From a virus, in the IMG/VR virus record IMGVR_UViG_3300048839_000281, positions 1 to 38,936 of that record: a stretch of 38,936 nucleotides of DNA. One strand, given 5' to 3'. Of this stretch, positions 5,636 through 35,077 are shown piece by piece. Each line of letters begins with the position of its first letter. The stretch's first letter is position 1. Made by a program: the position numbers and the translations under genes. The notes beneath the pieces are model-generated. The model saw only the letters and a list, made by a program, of their open reading frames with translations, ran no database searches and had not been told where the DNA came from.

Positions 5636-6002
5636 AACCTTTTTCATTCCTGGGAATGTCCCAAGTTCAAAGAACGGCAAGCAGTGGACTGGCCGATATT
5701 TTGTGTACAGCAAAGCCACCAAGAGGTACCAAAAAGAGTCTCGGGACTGGTACTTGGTATATAGAGACGAGTTCAAAGAAATCATCAAAGATCTTCCCAA
5801 ACCACTCGTTATTGAGTTTGAGTTTGTGCGTGACTCGCACCGAAAGTTTGACTATGTGAACCCGCTCCAAACGGTGCAGGACTTTATGGTTGAGGCTGGG
5901 TGGATGGAAGATGACAATGCAGACGAACTGATCCCCAGGTTCCTGCCCTACCGATACGATAAAGAGAAACCTGGGGTGTATATTTCAGTTGTTACTTCGT
6001 AG
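5625..6002 (+). CDS. rusA: RusA-like Holliday junction resolvase
   Basis: A 125-aa protein that matches RusA in length and order. The N-terminus (FFIPGNVPSSKN) is the usual family opening, and the acidic site is D76 in RKFDYVNPLQTV, D86 in QDFM and D96-D97 in MEDDNAD. RusA cuts four-way junctions, here probably resolving replication and recombination intermediates before packaging. I chose the ATG at 5625 over an upstream TTG at 5616. It overlaps the previous gene by 11 bases, and its stop overlaps the convergent leftward gene by 11 bases. Confidence 0.88.
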   Translation: MTNKTFFIPGNVPSSKNGKQWTGRYFVYSKATKRYQKESRDWYLVYRDEFKEIIKDLPKPLVIEFEFVRDSHRKFDYVNPLQTVQDFMVEAGWMEDDNADELIPRFLPYRYDKEKPGVYISVVTS

Positions 6003-6496: not shown

Positions 6497-7210
6497 TTAG
6501 TACAGGCGTGTCCGCACTTTATTATTATGATTATAAATATCCTCGAGTACACGCAGATAATCTCGAGTGCTTTCGTAGGCTGGGATCTGTTTTGTGTAGG
6601 ACTCCAGCTTCTCTGCCATTCTTGACCAGTCAACATCGGGGTTGCGCAGACAGGTTCGCATTGCTCTGACAAACCCCCTGCTTCGGCGCACCTGTTGATT
6701 AGTGTGTTCGTGGAACATGTGGATTTTACCCACCACTTCATAGGCTTCGTCCATCGAGGTGACTTCAAAACCACCCGTCTTGAACTGAGCCATGTGTCCA
6801 CCTCCCCAATTTTCTTTTGAGAGTAGCCACACTGATATGCTCACTGGCAGATCGTGGTTCTCATAGAAACTTTTGAGGGTGATGTAATGCTCGTTGCCCT
6901 GTGAAGCGTAGGACTCCGCATAATCTTTGAGTCCCCACTGTCGCTGGTGAGCGTTGAGTTGCTGAACGACCTTGATCGTTGCACCCTGCACCGTGACGTA
7001 GGCGACCTCTACACCCAAACTTTCGGCTGCTAAGAGTCGATGCTGACCATCAATCACCTCCATCTTTTCATTGACCAAAATGGGGTTGTAGGGGAGTAGG
7101 TTTTGCTGCGCAATACTGGCAGCTAATTGTTTGACGTGGTTATCACTCACCTGACGGTTGCCCGTTATGGTTTTGAAAACCCGATAGTCCTTGGTACTGT
7201 TTATTTTCAT
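6497..7210 (-). CDS. ParB/Srx-fold nuclease-like protein
   Basis: A 237-aa protein with the ParB N-terminal core: SIAQQNLLPYNPILVNEKME followed by VIDGQHRLLAAESLGV (residues 52-67), where DGQHR is the family signature. In phages this fold appears in ParB-like nucleases, partition-like proteins and regulators of DNA modification. No clear ParB helix-turn-helix is visible, and the C-terminal half (from about 100) is unlike partition ParB proteins. The ribosome binding site is weak (AGAAAGAAAA). It sits in a replication-linked operon, but its role is open. Confidence 0.75.
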   Translation of the reverse strand: MKINSTKDYRVFKTITGNRQVSDNHVKQLAASIAQQNLLPYNPILVNEKMEVIDGQHRLLAAESLGVEVAYVTVQGATIKVVQQLNAHQRQWGLKDYAESYASQGNEHYITLKSFYENHDLPVSISVWLLSKENWGGGHMAQFKTGGFEVTSMDEAYEVVGKIHMFHEHTNQQVRRSRGFVRAMRTCLRNPDVDWSRMAEKLESYTKQIPAYESTRDYLRVLEDIYNHNNKVRTRLY

Positions 7211-10141: not shown

Positions 10142-10435
10142 TCATAAACAGAGCGCCTCGATAACGTCCTTGATAAACGGATCGTCCTCTGCTTGCTTTT
10201 TAGTTTCCAACACATCGGCAATTTCACCCATCGCTCGCCACACCTTCTTTTGGTCGGGATCATTTCGGTCTGCTCTAAATATCCACTCCAGCATGCGAGC
10301 CTTCTTAGCTTCCAATTCGGAGATCGAAAGCTCATACCAGTTGCGTGTCATTCCTGGTGATTGAGGCTCTGGTTTTGGTGGGTCTGGACGCTTCTGAGCG
10401 TTAGTTCTATATGCGTCCCACGGATGCTGGCTCAT
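10142..10435 (-). CDS. Small unknown helical protein
   Basis: A 97-aa protein with a Pro-rich N-terminus (RPDPPKPEPQSPGMTRNWYE) and a helical, charged body (ELSISELEAKKARMLEWIF). It overlaps the prim-pol stop by 4 bases (ATGA). Adjacency to the replicative enzyme suggests an accessory replication role; no family recognised. Confidence 0.6.
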   Translation of the reverse strand: MSQHPWDAYRTNAQKRPDPPKPEPQSPGMTRNWYELSISELEAKKARMLEWIFRADRNDPDQKKVWRAMGEIADVLETKKQAEDDPFIKDVIEALCL

Positions 10436-12027
10436 GCCATGTCTCCAAATAAATCTTTGGCCATGTCGGTAGTATCAAGGATGCCAGCGCCGTTCTCTTG
10501 GAACTCAATCACCACGCGCCCCTGCTTCCCCGCCTTGGTTTTTCTAATCAAAATACTTCCCATGTTGGTGTAGATCTCAGAACCCGAGTCGTCCTTCTCA
10601 TGCTCACGCACCACCAGTAGCACGTCAGTGGCATCTTGTTTGAACGCACCCGATCCTGCGATGTCATCTTCGTGGAGCTGGGCTTTTCTACTCTGACGCT
10701 TACGAATGTGAGCCACAACTACAATGGCGCTTTGTTTTGACTTGGCCAGTCCTGCGAGTTTTTTCATAGCATCCGCTTGCAAATCCAAGGTTTTACCAGC
10801 TTCCGTAGTGAAGTAGCCAATGTGGTCAACCACAATCAGGTCGTATCTGGGGAGTGCGTTCACCACTGCGATCAAGTCACTAAGTTTTCTAATCTGGTCT
10901 TTGCTGTATACCGAAATGTTTCCGTCAGCTTGGAGAATATCTTCTGTCTCCAACTCGGCAAATGTCTTGCCAGTCCTGATGCTAGCCAGATAGTCAACGA
11001 TAGTGTTCTCTGGTTCGAGTGCAAAGTACAATACTTTTTTTCCCTGCTGTGAGACGCGGTGCGCAAAGTTCAAACACATGGTTGTTTTTCCCACGTTGGT
11101 ATCGCCTGAGAAAGCAATAAGGTGGCCAGGGATGAAGCCCTTGATATGCTCATCAAGTTTTGAGTAGCCAGTGCTGGGTGCTATCTTTTCGAGCTTGCGC
11201 TCCTCCACACGTTTCATGGCCACTTCGCCCAAGCTCATTGGTTGCACCACCCCGTCACTTGGAGTGATACCGTTCCTGCGAGCGATCATCTCGGAGCGCT
11301 TGACACTATCGAATGTAGCTTTGAGTTCGTGTTCGGGAAGTGGGGGGTCGCACTTCTCAATGTTCCATTGCCTGAGACTTCCCCAAGCTGCCATGTCCCA
11401 CAACTCAATGTCGATTTTGCGAAGTAGAGAACCAGCAACCCGCGCTGCGGTATCGTTGCGTCCACCCTCCGACACTTTGGGGTAGGGGTTGTCTTGGCTG
11501 GGATCGAAGTCAAGGGGGGTGTGTTCTTTCTTTTTGAGCATTTCTGCCACGTTGGCTGGCAACTCACTCAAATACATTGGCGCAGTTCGGCGCTCAAACT
11601 CGTAGCTCTTTTCACCATAGGCGCTGGGTGGAAGTACCACATACCCACCATCACCACGGAAGTCTATTGGCATCCCGTCTACACGCACCGTATTTCTCAG
11701 TCCCTCAGTCCAACGATAGAAGTAATGACGACCCCCGCTAAACGCCGATTTCACCACAATTGGTGAGCTGAGACTCACTGGATCTTTCTCATCGTCCACG
11801 TCTATCACAACCACGTTTGAGATTTCACCAGTCACTAGGCCAATACCCATCGGGCGCATCTTGATCCACTCATCAACTTCTGCCTCAGTCGCCAGTCTGG
11901 ACTGGTAGGGTTTCCAAGCAACCATTGGTTTCTTCTCAATTTTGCCAGAGGCGTTTCGCTGAAAGGTGACGGGGAATACTGACCACCCCAGACCGATGTA
12001 CTCACGGAAAGTTTCTTTGGTAATCAT
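10432..12027 (-). CDS. Prim-pol primase/polymerase fused to RecA-type replicative helicase
   Basis: A 531-aa fusion. Residues 1-165 are an archaeo-eukaryotic type primase/polymerase (prim-pol): VVVIDVDDE with catalytic acids D76-D79, SGGRHYFYR (97-105) and DFRGDGGYVVLPPS (122-135). Residues 185-250 look like the linker or PriCT-like helical region (EGGRNDTAARVAG). From about 285 a DnaB/RecA-type motor follows: Walker A GDTNVGKTT (308-316), Walker B LIVVDHIG (397-404) and VVVAHIRKR (436-444). It should both prime and unwind the fork. GGAGGG lies 6 bases before the ATG, which overlaps the initiator stop. Confidence 0.88.
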   Translation of the reverse strand: MITKETFREYIGLGWSVFPVTFQRNASGKIEKKPMVAWKPYQSRLATEAEVDEWIKMRPMGIGLVTGEISNVVVIDVDDEKDPVSLSSPIVVKSAFSGGRHYFYRWTEGLRNTVRVDGMPIDFRGDGGYVVLPPSAYGEKSYEFERRTAPMYLSELPANVAEMLKKKEHTPLDFDPSQDNPYPKVSEGGRNDTAARVAGSLLRKIDIELWDMAAWGSLRQWNIEKCDPPLPEHELKATFDSVKRSEMIARRNGITPSDGVVQPMSLGEVAMKRVEERKLEKIAPSTGYSKLDEHIKGFIPGHLIAFSGDTNVGKTTMCLNFAHRVSQQGKKVLYFALEPENTIVDYLASIRTGKTFAELETEDILQADGNISVYSKDQIRKLSDLIAVVNALPRYDLIVVDHIGYFTTEAGKTLDLQADAMKKLAGLAKSKQSAIVVVAHIRKRQSRKAQLHEDDIAGSGAFKQDATDVLLVVREHEKDDSGSEIYTNMGSILIRKTKAGKQGRVVIEFQENGAGILDTTDMAKDLFGDMA

Positions 12028-12716
12028 TGGTTGCCCTCCTTCAACGCATCACGGAACCGCAACACTTGGGGATCGTCAGTCTCAAAATTAAGAAGCTGAC
12101 CAATTACATCGAGGTCAGCTCCCTTTGAGTCCGTTCGTTTGAAGAGAAGATGTGGTGTGAGTTTGTCGCCCCAATACGGGTGCTTCTGGTGTGAGCCAAT
12201 GGCGACTTTGATTTCCTTCTCAGAGTACACACTCGTCCAGTAATCAAACGTCTCGCCACTCACAGCTTGTGATCGAAACTTTTTGCTGTAGCGTTTGTTC
12301 CACCATTCCAACAAAGACTCTTTCGTGAACCCATTTACTATAGGACGTTCCTGTGTATGTGTATTTTTTATTTTATTCTTGTTATTTATATGCCCCATCT
12401 GTGGGGAGGGGGTATCCCCCGCTGTGGGGAGGGGGGACGTAGATGAGGCTCGGATAATTCTCTCAGTTTTCCAGCGCCCACGCTCGTCCTGAGACTTCTT
12501 CGCTTCAACCTGAATGACTCCGAGTCGGGCAAGTTTGGACACAATGCGTGAAATACTTTTGGCAATGACTCCCACCTGCTCCGCAATGTGTTCATTCGTT
12601 GCGTGGCAGAAGCCATTCTTTTTTGTGAGGCCAAGGATAACGCCAGCCACATACTTGTCAGTGATCGTCAGATCTTTGCGTGAAGCAACTTCAATTGGTA
12701 TGTGGACATACATCAT
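12024..12716 (-). CDS. Winged-helix replication initiator-like protein with origin-like linker
   Basis: A 230-aa protein. Residues 1-75 form a winged helix: ITDKYVAGVILGL, then VGVIAKSISRIVSKLARLGV as the recognition-helix region. Residues 85-125 are a low-complexity linker (SPQMGHINNKNKIKNTHTQE) encoded by the AT- and G-rich repeats at 12378-12435. The C-terminal part (about 130-230) resembles DnaD/helicase-loader domains (FTKESLLEWWNKRYSK, WTSVYSEKEIKVAI). The layout is like lambda O, where the origin lies in the linker-coding part. It begins the leftward replication operon. AAGGA lies 7 bases before the ATG. Confidence 0.75.
   Translation of the reverse strand: MMYVHIPIEVASRKDLTITDKYVAGVILGLTKKNGFCHATNEHIAEQVGVIAKSISRIVSKLARLGVIQVEAKKSQDERGRWKTERIIRASSTSPLPTAGDTPSPQMGHINNKNKIKNTHTQERPIVNGFTKESLLEWWNKRYSKKFRSQAVSGETFDYWTSVYSEKEIKVAIGSHQKHPYWGDKLTPHLLFKRTDSKGADLDVIGQLLNFETDDPQVLRFRDALKEGNQ
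12378..12435. other. Origin-like element inside the initiator gene
   Basis: A perfect 14-base direct repeat, CTGTGGGGAGGGGG, lies at 12399-12412 and 12422-12435 (period 23), next to an AT-rich tract (about 12360-12390). A copy of the same 42-base block (12378-12419, about three mismatches) lies in inverted orientation at 24475-24517. Iterons plus an AT-rich tract in an initiator gene is the lambda-type origin layout. The G-runs could also form a quadruplex. Function inferred. Confidence 0.5.
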
Positions 12717-12736
12717 GGCCGTTTCCTTTCAAAACG

Positions 12737-12870
12737 AAAAAACCGTCTTTCGGCTGGCAAGGCTCTAGTAAAAGAGACTTTTGGCAAAGTGTTACCTTGC
12801 CATGCGAAAAACGGTTTGTTGAGTTTCGCTCTTGTTTACTAAGATAGACCCCACACTTTGCCAAATGGGG
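12737..12870 (-). ncRNA. Structured leader (attenuator-like) of the replication operon
   Basis: Read on the minus strand, the RNA has a CCCC/GGGG hairpin (12870-12849) whose loop contains TTTGGCAAAGTGT (12865-12853). It is followed by a branched domain closed by AAACCGT/ACGGTTT (12817-12811 with 12746-12740). Inside are TGGCAAGG/CCTTGCCA (12802-12795 with 12762-12755) and two small hairpins, ACTTT-GCCA-AAAGT and CTCT/AGAG. The closing stem runs into six T bases (12742-12737), like a terminator. The first loop is a perfect 13-base complement of 12792-12780, inside the domain, so two folds exclude each other. It ends before the AAGGA and ATG of the initiator gene. Confidence 0.6.
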
Positions 12871-12939
12871 ACGGAGTTTATGCTCTCCGACTTGCGTAGT
12901 CTTGACCCTTGTTGGGGGACGGCTTCTTACGGCTTTCAC

Positions 12940-12969
12940 ACAATAGCACGGGGGGTGTAATGTTGTAAA
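12940..12969 (-). promoter_or_regulatory. Leftward promoter of the replication operon
   Basis: Minus strand TTTACA (12969-12964), an 18-base spacer and TATTGT (12945-12940), extended by TGC (TGCTATTGT). Predicted start near 12933 would give a leader of about 215 bases to the initiator ATG, holding the branched RNA. The spacer and -10 box overlap palindromic box 3. Confidence 0.55.
12943..12961. promoter_or_regulatory. Palindromic box 3
   Basis: On the minus strand ATTACACCCCCCGTGCTAT (19 bases): arms ATTACAC and GTGCTAT around a C-run. It has one extra C relative to boxes 2 and 5. It overlaps the -10 box of the replication-operon promoter. Confidence 0.55.
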
Positions 12970-13071
12970 GTAGAAGAACTCTACTCGAGGTAGAGCAAGC
13001 TGCACCTCCTGAAAATTACCACAATGGCTAGTAGTGAAGCGCAGCTTGCTAGACAGCGGTAGTATATACGC

Positions 13072-13119
13072 TTGACTTTCATTTTGGAAGTTGCTATTCT
13101 TGTTGCACCCCGTTATAAT
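13072..13119 (+). promoter_or_regulatory. Two overlapping rightward promoters for the early region
   Basis: Promoter A: TTGACT (13072-13077), 17 bases, TATTCT (13095-13100). Promoter B: TTGCTA (13091-13096), 17 bases, perfect TATAAT (13114-13119). B's -35 box overlaps A's -10 box. The AAAGGAGG and ATG of the ssDNA-binding-like gene (13155) lie downstream. The palindrome CGTTAT-A-ATAACG (13111-13123) is centred on B's -10 box. Confidence 0.75.
13102..13119. promoter_or_regulatory. Palindromic box 4
   Basis: GTTGCACCCCGTTATAAT: a left arm TTGCAC as in box 5 and a right arm ATAAT as in the mirror of box 2, around CCC. It covers the spacer and -10 box of promoter B at 13091-13119 and sits next to the 13-base palindrome 13111-13123. 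Confidence 0.5.
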
Positions 13120-13154
13120 AACGAAGTATTAAAAACTAATTAAAGGAGGCTATC

Positions 13155-13718
13155 ATGGTAAATGATGCTTGGGTTCCAGAGGACTATTCCGTACCATCGG
13201 GAGGTTCACCATTTATGAGGTTCGAGGATGGGGACAATGTTGTTCGCATCATGTCGAAGCCAACCTTCGGTTGGGAGTTGTGGATTGAAAACAAACCACT
13301 GCGCCGAAAAGATAAAGCTGAGTTCACTAAAGAGGAACTAGCCAAGGCAGACATCAACTCTTTCTCTGGTGAGCGCTCACGTCCTCAACACTTCTGGGCG
13401 TTGCCTGTATGGAACTACGCTGCAAAGCAAGTTCAGTTGTTACAGGTCAATCAAAGCTCGGTGCAGTCACAATTACTTGGACTCGTTCGCAACCCAAAAT
13501 GGGGCGCGCTGGACAAGTATGACGTGAACATCGTCAAAGGTAAGCAAGGTCAACAGGTCAAGTACACAGTACAACCTGAACCACCAACACCTCTTGATAA
13601 AGACATCAAGGAAGTTTGGGATAACGTCACTCTGAACATGGAGGAATACTTCACTGGCGGTCGTCCACTAGAGCTCAACACTCCAACTGAGTCAGCTGAA
13701 AGTGTTATCAACGATTAG
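13155..13718 (+). CDS. Single-stranded DNA-binding-like protein
   Basis: A 187-aa protein at the head of the rightward early operon. It begins with FMRFEDGDNVVRIMSKP and contains HFWALPVWNYAAKQVQLLQV and QSQLLGLVRNPKWGALDKYD, a pattern seen in phage OB-fold ssDNA-binding proteins. The C-terminus is acidic (NTPTESAESVIND), as in SSB tails that recruit partners. AAAGGAGG lies before the ATG. Family assignment is from pattern only; no crystal-type motif fixes it. Confidence 0.65.
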   Translation: MVNDAWVPEDYSVPSGGSPFMRFEDGDNVVRIMSKPTFGWELWIENKPLRRKDKAEFTKEELAKADINSFSGERSRPQHFWALPVWNYAAKQVQLLQVNQSSVQSQLLGLVRNPKWGALDKYDVNIVKGKQGQQVKYTVQPEPPTPLDKDIKEVWDNVTLNMEEYFTGGRPLELNTPTESAESVIND

Positions 13719-23763: not shown

Positions 23764-23788
23764 AAGCCCCCAAATCGGGGGCTTTTTT
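23764..23788 (+). terminator. Strong rho-independent terminator
   Basis: AAGCCCCC (23764-23771) / GGGGGCTT (23777-23784) with loop AAATC and a T-run to 23788. It closes the accessory operon. Confidence 0.9.
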
Positions 23789-24377
23789 GCGTCTATGGGA
23801 CTATGTAGTTATTGAGGTGTAAACGTGGCGAAATGGTGTCAATGATGGGCGATAATTGATAAGTGTGAGGCGGTCGGGGATTGTATCGCGGGGCGTGGGG
23901 GTTGTCTAGTGCAAGGTTCGGCAGTCAGGGGGATCGACTGCTAAATACATGGGTATTGGAGGGCGGGGGTCGGTAGTTGGCGTGAGTTAGCACTTACACG
24001 CACCCCCGCACCCCGTTTCTACCTCTGGTGCGTGGGGTTACGTCGCAAATGCAATATTGTGCGACATAAAACCCTCAGTACCTCAAGTTGGGGGTTGACT
24101 AAAACACCCCCCGCCCCCCAAATCAAAGCACCCCCCATACCCCTACATCACATTGAGAAGCACCCCCACCCCGTGCGGGGGTTGGGTAGGTGGGGGGCTG
24201 GACACGTGACCCTCAGTCAAAACTTTTTTGCTAATTCGTTTCACGCCTCAAATTACCGCGCAATTTTTTGTACTCGGCTATTTTTTTGTGTTCAATTTTT
24301 TTTAGAAAAAATTATATGAAAACCCGAAACACCCCCCCCAACCCCCAACCCTCGACATCAAGAACCGAGGAACATAT

Positions 24378-24433
24378 ATGTCCATCGGTCTACCTCTGAT
24401 CCGATCCTCATAAATGTCCCTCGGTCTACCTCT
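24378..24433. repeat. 20-base direct repeat in the noncoding region
   Basis: ATGTCC(A/C)TCGGTCTACCTCT occurs at 24378-24397 and 24414-24433, one mismatch, 36 bases apart. A shorter AACCCGAAACAC repeat lies around 24325 and 24438. No promoter or gene is linked to them. Confidence 0.75.
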
Positions 24434-24474
24434 AGTAAACCCGAAACACGCTGTATTACACGGGTGTACATGTA

Positions 24475-24530
24475 GGGGTATACCCCCCCCCCACAGATGA
24501 GGCATATAAATAACAAGTATAAATAACAAG
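24475..24530. repeat. Second copy of the origin-like block, with a tandem 13-mer
   Basis: 24475-24517 carries, in inverted orientation, the block at 12378-12419 (GGCATATAAATAACAAG, the CCCCACAGATG stretch and a GGGG-TAT-CCCC palindrome; about three mismatches). The 13-mer TATAAATAACAAG is then perfectly repeated at 24505-24517 and 24518-24530. It is noncoding here and coding at the first site. Confidence 0.7.
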
Positions 24531-24712
24531 TTACATACACACATAGGCAGTATCCTATAGTATTTTTTTTTAGACACACCCTTTGCGACCACCCCACCTC
24601 GTTGCTTTGCAGTATCGCTAATCAGCGTGAGTGATCCCCCGCATAGCCGACTTGCCCCTTTCGACTAAAACTGGTGTAGGCAGGGCAAGGCGCGAGTGGT
24701 AGCATTGGTGGT

Positions 24713-26932: not shown

Positions 26933-27295
26933 TCAATTGTCTGGTGATTGTAAACTCCGCTCGGAGTATTCGTATGTGGTGAGGTCGATCATCCAGAGGT
27001 AGAGTCTGTGTGGTAGAAACCACGGGCGGGGTTTGGCGACTCGCACTCCCACTTCGGGAGCGTAGACTTTGGCAGGTTGAGCGATGAAGGTACTGACCGT
27101 GACTCCCAGATCCCACTGTTCTTCTTTGGTCAACAAGCGATAGCGCTTCTTGATGATGTGTTCACCCATTGTGTGATTGCCACCAGACTCAGTGGTTTGC
27201 ACATGCCAAGCGTCACCAGTTTTTTGAAGGATGCGCAGGTACGTTCCCTTTCGGCGCTCGATCCAGACTTGACCCTTCTTGATTTTTTTTATCAT
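26933..27295 (-). CDS. Unknown basic protein next to the glycosyltransferase
   Basis: A 120-aa basic protein (KKIKKGQVWIERRKGTYLRI) with a beta-rich N-terminal part that resembles a small barrel, and a Trp/Tyr-rich middle (PWFLPHRLYLWMIDLTTYEY). It overlaps the glycosyltransferase stop by 4 bases (ATGA), so the two are co-translated. Role unknown; nucleic acid binding is possible. Confidence 0.6.
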   Translation of the reverse strand: MIKKIKKGQVWIERRKGTYLRILQKTGDAWHVQTTESGGNHTMGEHIIKKRYRLLTKEEQWDLGVTVSTFIAQPAKVYAPEVGVRVAKPRPWFLPHRLYLWMIDLTTYEYSERSLQSPDN

Positions 27296-28008
27296 TGCAT
27301 GACGGTCTGTTCATTTTTCAGCCCCTCATAGTATTTTTCTTTTTCTTCTTTGATCCAGCGAGTGAAGTCGGCCTTGGTTTTTGTGGAGTTCCCAACGTGG
27401 CCAAGCTCAATTCGATTGTGCGCCCACACTTCTATGCCCTGTTTTCGGGCTTCCAAACAGAACGCGATGTCCTCGCCCACCTCATCGTAGGGGAACGGCT
27501 TTTTGGTTAGGTTGAACTGCTCTGGCTTAGCATGAAAGAAGAATGGAGGCTCCATTTTTTTGAATACTTCCATGTCAATGAGCAAGAACCCTGTGCCGAT
27601 GCCTTCCACTTGGAACATGTTCACGTCATCGGGGACGTGGCTGGGGTTGGTAATTTCGTTTGGAAGGGTGGGGTGTTTGATTTTCAGCACGGGGAACGGG
27701 GTCATGCGTCCGTAGTAGATGCCACCGATGATGTCTTTCTTGGCTTCAAGCAGTGTTTCGATCCCGTCAGCGGGGAAGTTGATGTCTGAGTCGATGAACA
27801 TGAGGTGTGTGGCACCCACGTCCACCGCTTCATACACCGCACGGTTTCTCGCCATGTGGATGTAGGTCTGTCGCTGGATGTCAAAGGTAAATGGTATCCT
27901 GGTTTTCTGACTCCACATAATGAAGCTAGCAAAAGTCTCTGCTTTTATTTCACCTAGACATGGGATACTGATATGAAGTTTAATGGCTTTATTGTTTTTA
28001 GTCAGCAT
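27292..28008 (-). CDS. GT-A fold glycosyltransferase
   Basis: A 238-aa protein with a family 2-like GT-A layout: IHMARNRAVYEAVDVGATHL then FIDSD (71-75), where DSD (73-75) is the metal-binding DxD motif; GIYYGRMTPFPVLK and GTGFLLIDMEVF follow. It transfers a sugar from an activated donor, perhaps to the virion, DNA or host surface glycans. It is divergent from the terminase, only 20 bases away, so promoters for both must overlap neighbouring sequence. Confidence 0.85.
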   Translation of the reverse strand: MLTKNNKAIKLHISIPCLGEIKAETFASFIMWSQKTRIPFTFDIQRQTYIHMARNRAVYEAVDVGATHLMFIDSDINFPADGIETLLEAKKDIIGGIYYGRMTPFPVLKIKHPTLPNEITNPSHVPDDVNMFQVEGIGTGFLLIDMEVFKKMEPPFFFHAKPEQFNLTKKPFPYDEVGEDIAFCLEARKQGIEVWAHNRIELGHVGNSTKTKADFTRWIKEEKEKYYEGLKNEQTVMQ

Positions 28009-34992: not shown

Positions 34993-35064
34993 CGCGGGAT
35001 GGCAGAGAGGTCATGCGCTAAGCTCATAACTTAGACCACGTTGGTTCGACTCCAACTCCCGCAA
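34993..35064 (+). tRNA. Initiator-like tRNA-Met (CAT)
   Basis: A complete cloverleaf. Acceptor arms CGCGGGA / TCCCGCA pair at six of seven positions, leaving the 1-72 pair as C·A, which is the hallmark of bacterial initiator tRNA. U8, the D arm GCA/TGC and the loop CTCATAA (anticodon CAT) fit. The T arm GTTGG-TTCGACT-CCAAC is perfect. The anticodon stem CTAAG/CTTAG lacks the three G-C pairs of a typical initiator. The CCA end is not encoded. An elongator Met or lysidine-modified Ile tRNA cannot be excluded. Confidence 0.8.
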
Positions 35065-35077
35065 CAGTAGGTTTAGC

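What the first reader, a model, noticed from the sequence alone, without database searches (positions are those of the whole stretch)
24475..24530. A second, inverted copy of the origin-like block in noncoding DNA, followed by a perfect tandem 13-mer
About 42 bases of the element at 12378 recur here with around three mismatches, although this copy codes for nothing and lies 12 kb away in opposite orientation. Conservation in coding and noncoding contexts implies selection on the DNA itself. It carries a GGGG-TAT-CCCC palindrome and two tandem copies of TATAAATAACAAG. A second origin, a termination site or an initiator-titrating site are possible.
Basis: partly seen in the sequence, partly recalled or inferred. 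Interest (0 to 1): 0.75.

Follow-up and report, generated by a model that had tools for sequence, protein, structure and literature searches.

The report
Duplicated, inverted phage replication origin
A bacterial virus appears to carry two copies of its DNA-replication start site, one hidden inside the gene for its starter protein and one, in reverse orientation, in non-coding DNA 12,000 bases away, an arrangement known from the Bacillus phage SPP1 and rare among the related phages looked at.

Summary
The window is a circularly closed tailed-phage contig (127-nt end repeat; 38,809-bp unit). Copy A (12352-12420) and copy B (24475-24543, inverted) match over 69 nt, 84% ungapped (77.9 bits; best of 200 shuffled genomes 31.0). 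A lies in the linker-coding part of a winged-helix replication initiator gene; B is non-coding. Mismatches fall at codon positions 1/2/3 as 8/2/1 and B has a stop in A's frame, so protein constraint does not explain the likeness. Both combine G-rich boxes with an AT-rich block that is among the six least stable DNA peaks of the genome at each of three window sizes.

Most phages tested with related initiators (18 of 25) carry iteron-like arrays at this place in the gene: a lambda/SPP1-style in-gene origin. A second, distant copy was found only in the window and three SPP1-like phages (4 of 25), where it coincides with SPP1's known second origin, oriR. Best reading: A is an oriL-like origin and B an oriR-like second initiator site (late origin or fork-stalling site). 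It differs from SPP1 in being inverted, with each copy pointing along local transcription, and in having one G box in B. Function is inferred; nothing here shows binding or firing.

The parts
12024..12716 (-). Replication initiator gene (230 aa): N-terminal winged helix, low-confidence linker and C-terminus; contains copy A
   Evidence: PHROG 'replication initiation protein' phrog_270 E 1.6e-12 and phrog_428 E 1.1e-11; AlphaFold model, helices and two strands in residues 8-90, block pLDDT 57-84, below 50 from residue 93 on; Foldseek matches to Rep/initiator N-terminal domains 4pql, 5kbj, 4pt7 at E 9e-4 to 3e-3
10432..12027 (-). Primase-polymerase / DnaB-type helicase fusion directly downstream of the initiator (places the initiator in a replication module)
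   Evidence: Pfam Prim-Pol E 3.5e-20, DnaB_C E 5.5e-20
12352..12435 (-). Copy A: in-gene origin-like element (gene nt about 282-365); the 69-nt block shared with B is 12352-12420
12399..12435 (+). Two G boxes CTGTGGGGAGGGGG, 23 bp start to start (12399, 12422), with GGGGGTATCCCCC (12408-12420) overlapping: putative initiator iterons
   Evidence: only places in the genome with <=2 mismatches apart from 24483; a 23-bp period is also found in the in-gene arrays of W04, W05, W12
12355..12391 (.). AT-rich block of copy A, putative DNA unwinding element, including one TTGTTATTTATA box (12379)
   Evidence: peak rank 1 (36-bp window), 2 (24 bp), 6 (50 bp) among least stable DNA of the genome
24475..24543 (+). 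Copy B: inverted, non-coding second copy of the element
24475..24496 (-). Single G box of copy B (24483-24496) with the perfect palindrome GGGGTATACCCC (24475-24486)
24505..24530 (-). Two perfect tandem 13-mers TATAAATAACAAG (AT boxes) of copy B; with flank 24504-24540 the putative unwinding element
   Evidence: peak rank 2 (36-bp), 4 (24-bp), 4 (50-bp) among least stable DNA
23794..24712 (.). Non-coding gap that holds copy B; rich in C- and G-runs; also a 36-nt tandem repeat at 24362-24433 and a second unstable stretch at about 24274-24333
23764..23784 (+). Intrinsic-terminator-like stem-loop before the gap
   Evidence: 1 found, 1.5 expected in shuffles, so weak on its own

Best explanation
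The phage has two copies of one replication-origin element, in the manner of Bacillus phage SPP1 (oriL/oriR). Copy A, inside the linker-coding part of the initiator gene, is the in-gene origin: the initiator (winged helix) binds the G boxes, the neighbouring AT-rich block melts, and the primase-helicase encoded next to it is loaded. Copy B, in a non-coding gap ahead of the packaging/structural genes, is a second site for the same initiator. I think it most likely acts late, as a second origin or as a place where forks stall or restart and replication switches to concatemers, as proposed for SPP1 oriR. Shown: the sequence duplication, its DNA-level nature, the initiator family, the low duplex stability of both AT blocks, and the match in layout to SPP1-like phages. 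Inferred: initiator binding, melting, firing, and B's late role.
For: Duplication far beyond chance. DNA-level, not protein-level, likeness. Initiator family by PHROG and by fold of its N-terminal domain, next to primase-helicase. Iteron-like arrays at the same place of the gene in 18 of 25 phages with this initiator type, followed in gene direction by AT-rich repeats where such repeats are flagged; A has this order. SPP1-like phages L181, L183, L184 show the same duplication in the same self-comparison: gene-38 linker versus late intergenic gap, 79-100 nt, 74-82%, the place where SPP1 oriL and oriR are described (PMC6316719 and PMC3485210, passages read; oriL insert coordinates in PMC5615212, passages). 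SPP1's initiator and the window's share PHROG phrog_428 (E 7e-47 and 1e-11). Both AT blocks are among the six least stable peaks of the genome at 24-, 36- and 50-bp windows. Distance 12.1 kb here, 12-13 kb stated for SPP1, 13.9 kb in L181. Cumulative GC skew has its minimum at 24,672, but see evidence against.
Against: B has only one G box, so direct iterons, a feature of SPP1 oriR, are not met in B. The pair is inverted while the SPP1-like pairs are direct; a fork leaving A through its AT side would reach B from B's AT side after about 26.7 kb, so the SPP1 fork-block geometry does not carry over directly. No relative with the same initiator and both copies was found, so conservation of the pair is untested. 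21 of 25 phages with such initiators lack a detectable second copy, G038 among them. GC-skew support is weak: block-shuffle p about 0.04-0.05, the minimum moves to 22,727 when the C-rich gap is left out, and third-position skew changes at B against the right arm (p 0.019) but not against all other plus-strand genes tested (p 0.12). A top-1% unstable window occurs in 48% of random segments of gene length, so instability of the initiator gene alone is modest evidence.
Confidence: 0.68

Rival explanations
1. Initiator-titrating or handcuffing site: B does not fire but binds initiator, alone or looped to A, to limit initiation.
For: B keeps a G box and palindrome but one iteron only. Extra origin copies in trans arrest lambda initiation (PMC4488673, abstract and outline read) and iteron plasmids compete for lambda O (PMC3985674, passages read).
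Against: Titration needs binding sites only, yet B keeps two perfect AT boxes and is one of the least stable stretches of the genome. One extra site in cis would titrate little (inference).
Confidence: 0.15
2. Fork barrier or terminus only: initiator bound at B stops forks arriving from A, and B never initiates.
For: Proposed for SPP1 oriR (PMC3485210, passages read). B lies ahead of the packaging module, where concatemers are needed.
Against: As for titration, an unwinding block is unnecessary; the inverted geometry differs from SPP1.
Confidence: 0.12
3. Regulatory site: the initiator or another phage factor binds A and B to control transcription (early operon at A, late operon at B).
For: B sits in a long gap between a terminator-like stem and the late genes.
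Against: A lies deep inside the initiator gene, not at a promoter; the promoter scan finds no site at B (2 found in the region, 1.9 expected, neither at B); in-gene arrays at this place look origin-type in related phages.
Confidence: 0.05
4. Accident: a recent duplication or recombination remnant without function.
For: Rare among relatives; no second genome shows it.
Against: Ends of the likeness coincide with a G-box plus AT-box module; the AT boxes are perfect while flanks differ; B has a second AT box; no coding remnant beyond 69 nt.
Confidence: 0.08
5. Inverted repeats serving site-specific or homologous inversion of the 12-kb segment.
For: 69-nt inverted repeats.
Against: Inversion would cut the initiator gene at codons 99-122; no recombinase was found among the proteins scanned (not all ORFs were scanned).
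Confidence: 0.02

Closest known systems
Bacillus phage SPP1 oriL/oriR (initiator G38P, gene 38) and SPP1-like phages 049ML001, 000TH010, 279BB001
   Same: One copy in the linker-coding part of the initiator gene, the second in a late-region intergenic gap 12-14 kb away; binding-site block followed by an AT-rich block in the direction of local transcription; initiators share PHROG phrog_428.
   Different: Copies are inverted here and direct in SPP1-likes; G-rich palindromic boxes at 23 bp, not 11-bp A-rich iterons; single G box in B; primase-polymerase/helicase fusion instead of separate loader and helicase; structural genes unrelated by the searches made.
Phage lambda ori within gene O, and O-like phages such as HK542
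   Same: Origin repeats inside the initiator gene (HK542; lambda: PMC6022878, abstract start in the listing; four iterons, PMC3985674 passages).
   Different: No second copy in HK542.
Phage P1 oriL within repL
   Same: Origin postulated inside an initiator gene with an AT-rich part (PMC9948254, abstract start in the listing).
   Different: P1's other origin has a different initiator (recalled); not compared here.
Staphylococcal plasmid RepA N-terminal domain (PDB 4pql, 4pt7, 5kbj) and DnaD N-terminal domain (2v79)
   Same: Among the best fold matches of the initiator's N-terminal domain (titles say DNA binding protein / initiator / Rep-DNA; 'staphylococcal RepA' is recalled).
   Different: Low-confidence model, TM-score about 0.5 or less; fold similarity of a winged helix only.

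Membership tests
SPP1-type paired origins (oriL/oriR) | One copy inside the initiator gene | tested here: met
   copy A at codons 99-122 of the initiator
SPP1-type paired origins (oriL/oriR) | Second copy in non-coding DNA of the late region | tested here: met
   stop in homologous frame; gap between terminator-like stem and late genes
SPP1-type paired origins (oriL/oriR) | Both copies have direct repeats plus an AT-rich unwinding block | tested here: inconclusive
   A: two G boxes + AT; B: one G box + two AT boxes; both AT blocks very unstable
SPP1-type paired origins (oriL/oriR) | Same orientation of both copies | tested here: not met
   inverted; SPP1-likes direct. Whether this defines the kind is doubtful, as all annotated genes of the SPP1-likes are read one way
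SPP1-type paired origins (oriL/oriR) | Initiator homologous to G38P | tested here: met
   shared phrog_428, window E 1.1e-11, SPP1-like E 6.9e-47; PHROG-level only
SPP1-type paired origins (oriL/oriR) | Initiator binds both copies; replication starts at one and switches to concatemers | not testable with these tools
   needs protein and infection
Lambda-type in-gene origin | Iterons within the initiator gene followed by AT-rich DNA | tested here: met
   copy A, two boxes then AT block in gene direction; same order in many relatives
Lambda-type in-gene origin | Initiator with N-terminal DNA-binding and C-terminal helicase-recruiting parts | tested here: inconclusive
   N-terminal winged helix modelled, C-terminus below pLDDT 50

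The most novel reading that the evidence does not exclude
A phage lineage unrelated to SPP1 in its structural genes has independently acquired a second origin, and the two copies are placed so that each fires along its own transcription unit: A leftwards with the early replication genes, B rightwards with the late genes. The phage would have two divergent origins run by one initiator, with B switching replication to the late, packaging-linked mode. The inversion relative to SPP1 would follow from the inverted early gene module.
Probability: 0.3. Interest if true: 0.65.

Novelty: new variant of a known kind. Interest (0 to 1): 0.5.

Why it matters
In what I read, SPP1 is the one phage lineage described with such a pair of origins, and the role of oriR there is still a proposal. 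A second, probably independent instance with inverted copies separates features that SPP1 cannot: whether orientation, iteron number in the second copy, or distance to the packaging genes matters. The survey also shows a simple rule (in-gene iterons, then AT-rich DNA, along transcription) by which origins of such phages can be found from sequence.

Tried and rejected
Peptide-pattern scans of viral contigs with the initiator, terminase and primase-helicase found no relatives, nor did a DNA pattern of the shared core or a plasmid search with the gap. tblastn of the initiator in the phage collection: no match. The MCP alignment reached kin, but the kin closest in structural genes, L009 (70%), shows in its 11.9-kb fragment only matches to window genes from 33.9 kb round to 5.6 kb, so it lacks both loci, and G038 (59%) has another initiator.

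GC skew was looked at as an independent test and judged weak and confounded by gene direction and by the C-rich gap. Duplex instability of the initiator gene in 24 of 25 phages looked striking until the control showed that 48% of random segments reach the same mark; the peak ranks of A and B were kept, with the window sizes at which they change.

G020's 23-nt perfect inverted pair (initiator gene/non-coding) was considered as a second example and set aside: it lies in the HTH-coding part, not in the iteron/linker part.

Rfam gave only the tRNA. Only residues 4-90 or so of the initiator model have usable confidence.

Limits of the survey: gene bounds were approximate for G017, G021, G024, G037 and W11; W03 and W07 were read to base 40,000 only; many contigs are not closed, so a second copy could lie outside; second copies much shorter or more diverged than those of SPP1-likes would be missed. 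By my reading of the TRF output, clear iteron arrays were flagged in 18 of 25; W06, W09, G037, G020, G017 and G024 were not clear, and the window itself (two boxes) was not flagged. All 30 longer MCP-kin records were self-compared; only 7 of them (G003, G016, G017, G020, G021, G024, G031) had an initiator that I placed and entered the 25; G036, with a weak phrog_428 match (E 3e-4), was left out; G038 came from a later scan.

Full report
WHAT THE WINDOW IS. The window begins and ends with the same 127 nt, so it is a circularly closed contig of 38,809 bp. It carries tailed-phage genes: terminase (PHROG E 9e-85), portal, DnaB-type primase-helicase and a replication initiator. The tool calls it a virus record. 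The major capsid protein has kin at about 30% identity or below in named phages and at 70, 59 and 58% in three IMG/VR contigs.

THE OBSERVATION. Copy A (12352-12420) and copy B (24475-24543) are inverted copies over 69 nt, 84% ungapped, 12,054 nt between the arms; it is the only dispersed repeat of the genome at E below 1e-3. In 200 dinucleotide-shuffled genomes the best match to A reached 31.0 bits against 77.9 observed. Read in the direction AT box to G box, A is [TTGTTATTTATA] TGCCCCAT [CTGTGGGGAGGGGG] TATCCCCCG [CTGTGGGGAGGGGG], and B is two perfect 13-mers, then TGCCTCAT, [CTGTGGGGGGGGGG], TATACCCC. A thus has one AT box and two G boxes (23 bp apart), B two AT boxes and one G box. Neither kind of box occurs elsewhere at the mismatch levels given.

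DNA-LEVEL LIKENESS. A codes for residues 99-122 of the initiator. The 11 mismatches fall at codon positions 1, 2, 3 as 8, 2, 1, the opposite of what protein constraint would leave, and B read in A's frame has a stop. B lies in a non-coding gap between a terminator-like stem (23764-23784) and the next small ORF.

THE INITIATOR. Gene 12024-12716 (minus) matches PHROG replication initiation families phrog_270 (1.6e-12) and phrog_428 (1.1e-11). The model has a winged-helix pattern in residues 8-90 and no confidence beyond 92, so copy A encodes the low-confidence stretch just after the DNA-binding domain. Foldseek's best matches are Rep/initiator N-terminal domains (4pql E 9e-4, 5kbj, 4pt7), with many other winged helices close behind.

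RELATED PHAGES. I examined 25 phages with an initiator of this broad type: the window, three SPP1-likes, twelve named phages, G037, seven of the 30 longer MCP-kin contigs (G003, G016, G017, G020, G021, G024, G031) and G038. In 18 of 25, TRF finds an iteron-like array in the middle of the initiator gene; where an AT-rich repeat is also flagged it follows the array in gene direction. This is the lambda/SPP1 in-gene origin, and copy A has the same place and order. The 23-bp spacing of A's G boxes equals the period of the arrays of W04, W05 and W12.

A distant second copy of the linker element (E below 1e-6) was found in 4 of 25: the window and the three SPP1-likes. In the latter it joins gene 38 (nt 350-449) with the intergenic gap after the head-protein gene: 79 nt 82%, 99 nt 74%, 100 nt 75%, all direct. 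[quoted passage not shown] G38P at oriR is proposed to stall forks and trigger the switch to concatemers (PMC6316719, PMC3485210: passages read). So the same self-comparison that flags the window also recovers a pair of known origins.

DUPLEX STABILITY. Ranking the least stable peaks of the circular genome, A's AT block is 2nd, 1st and 6th and B's 4th, 2nd and 4th for windows of 24, 36 and 50 bp. The SPP1-like oriR gaps hold the least stable 36-bp window of their genomes in 3 of 3. As a caution, random segments of gene length contain a top-1% window in 48% of 1000 draws, against 24 of 25 initiator genes.

GEOMETRY. In A the G boxes precede the AT block in the direction of the initiator gene (leftwards); in B they precede it in the direction of the late genes (rightwards). 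In SPP1-likes both copies run repeat block then AT block, rightwards, as all annotated genes do. So in both systems each copy points along local transcription, and the window's pair is inverted because its early module is inverted. This is an inference from layout. It also means that a fork leaving A through its AT side meets B after about 26.7 kb, from B's AT side, so the SPP1 barrier model does not transfer unchanged.

GC SKEW. The cumulative minimum lies at 24,672 and the maximum at 5,913, near B and near the point opposite. I give it little weight: block shuffles give p 0.04-0.05, the minimum moves to 22,727 without the gap, and third-position skew is equivocal.

VERDICT. Most likely A is the in-gene origin and B a second site of the same initiator, functionally like SPP1 oriR. 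Binding, melting and firing are not shown. I file it as a new variant of the SPP1-type paired origins and not as a plain member, because orientation was tested and not met and B's direct iterons are missing. Literature searches for other phages with such pairs listed none that I recognised beyond SPP1; this rests on titles and abstract starts, within the open-access library only.

Noticed in passing
window 23794-24712: The gap holding copy B has 15 of the genome's 61 runs of five or more C or G in 919 bp, G-runs mostly left and C-runs mostly right; the corresponding gap of G038 (12624-13523) is also C-rich in part although it lacks the element. It may hold a packaging or other signal.
   Followed up: partly
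window 24362-24433: Tandem pair of 36-nt repeats (81%) in the same gap, about 40 nt before copy B.
   Followed up: no
G020 (L141-L143) 40252-40274 and 45984-46006: Perfect 23-nt inverted pair, one arm in the HTH-coding part of the initiator gene, the other non-coding.
   Followed up: partly
G038 (L233:7767-8501): Nearest long-contig structural kin has a different initiator (phrog_2514 type) with its own in-gene 11-bp iterons and AT repeats: initiator and origin appear swapped together while capsid, terminase and portal stay 54-59% alike.
   Followed up: yes
window 6497-7210 (-): ParB-like protein (phrog_12305 E 6e-31) in the early module.
   Followed up: no
window 27292-28008 (-): Protein encoded against the late genes beside the terminase; a homologue also lies next to the terminase in G038, and others occur in G003 and in cyanophages. 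It reads like a glycosyltransferase (recalled, not tested).
   Followed up: no
window 34993-35065 (+): tRNA-Met (CAT) among the structural genes.
   Followed up: no
G031 (L145, L146), about 1.6, 3.5, 26.2 and 28.6 kb: Four dispersed copies of a 40-90-nt element, mostly non-coding, in a phage with an in-gene iteron array; the array's own unit was not found outside the gene.
   Followed up: no
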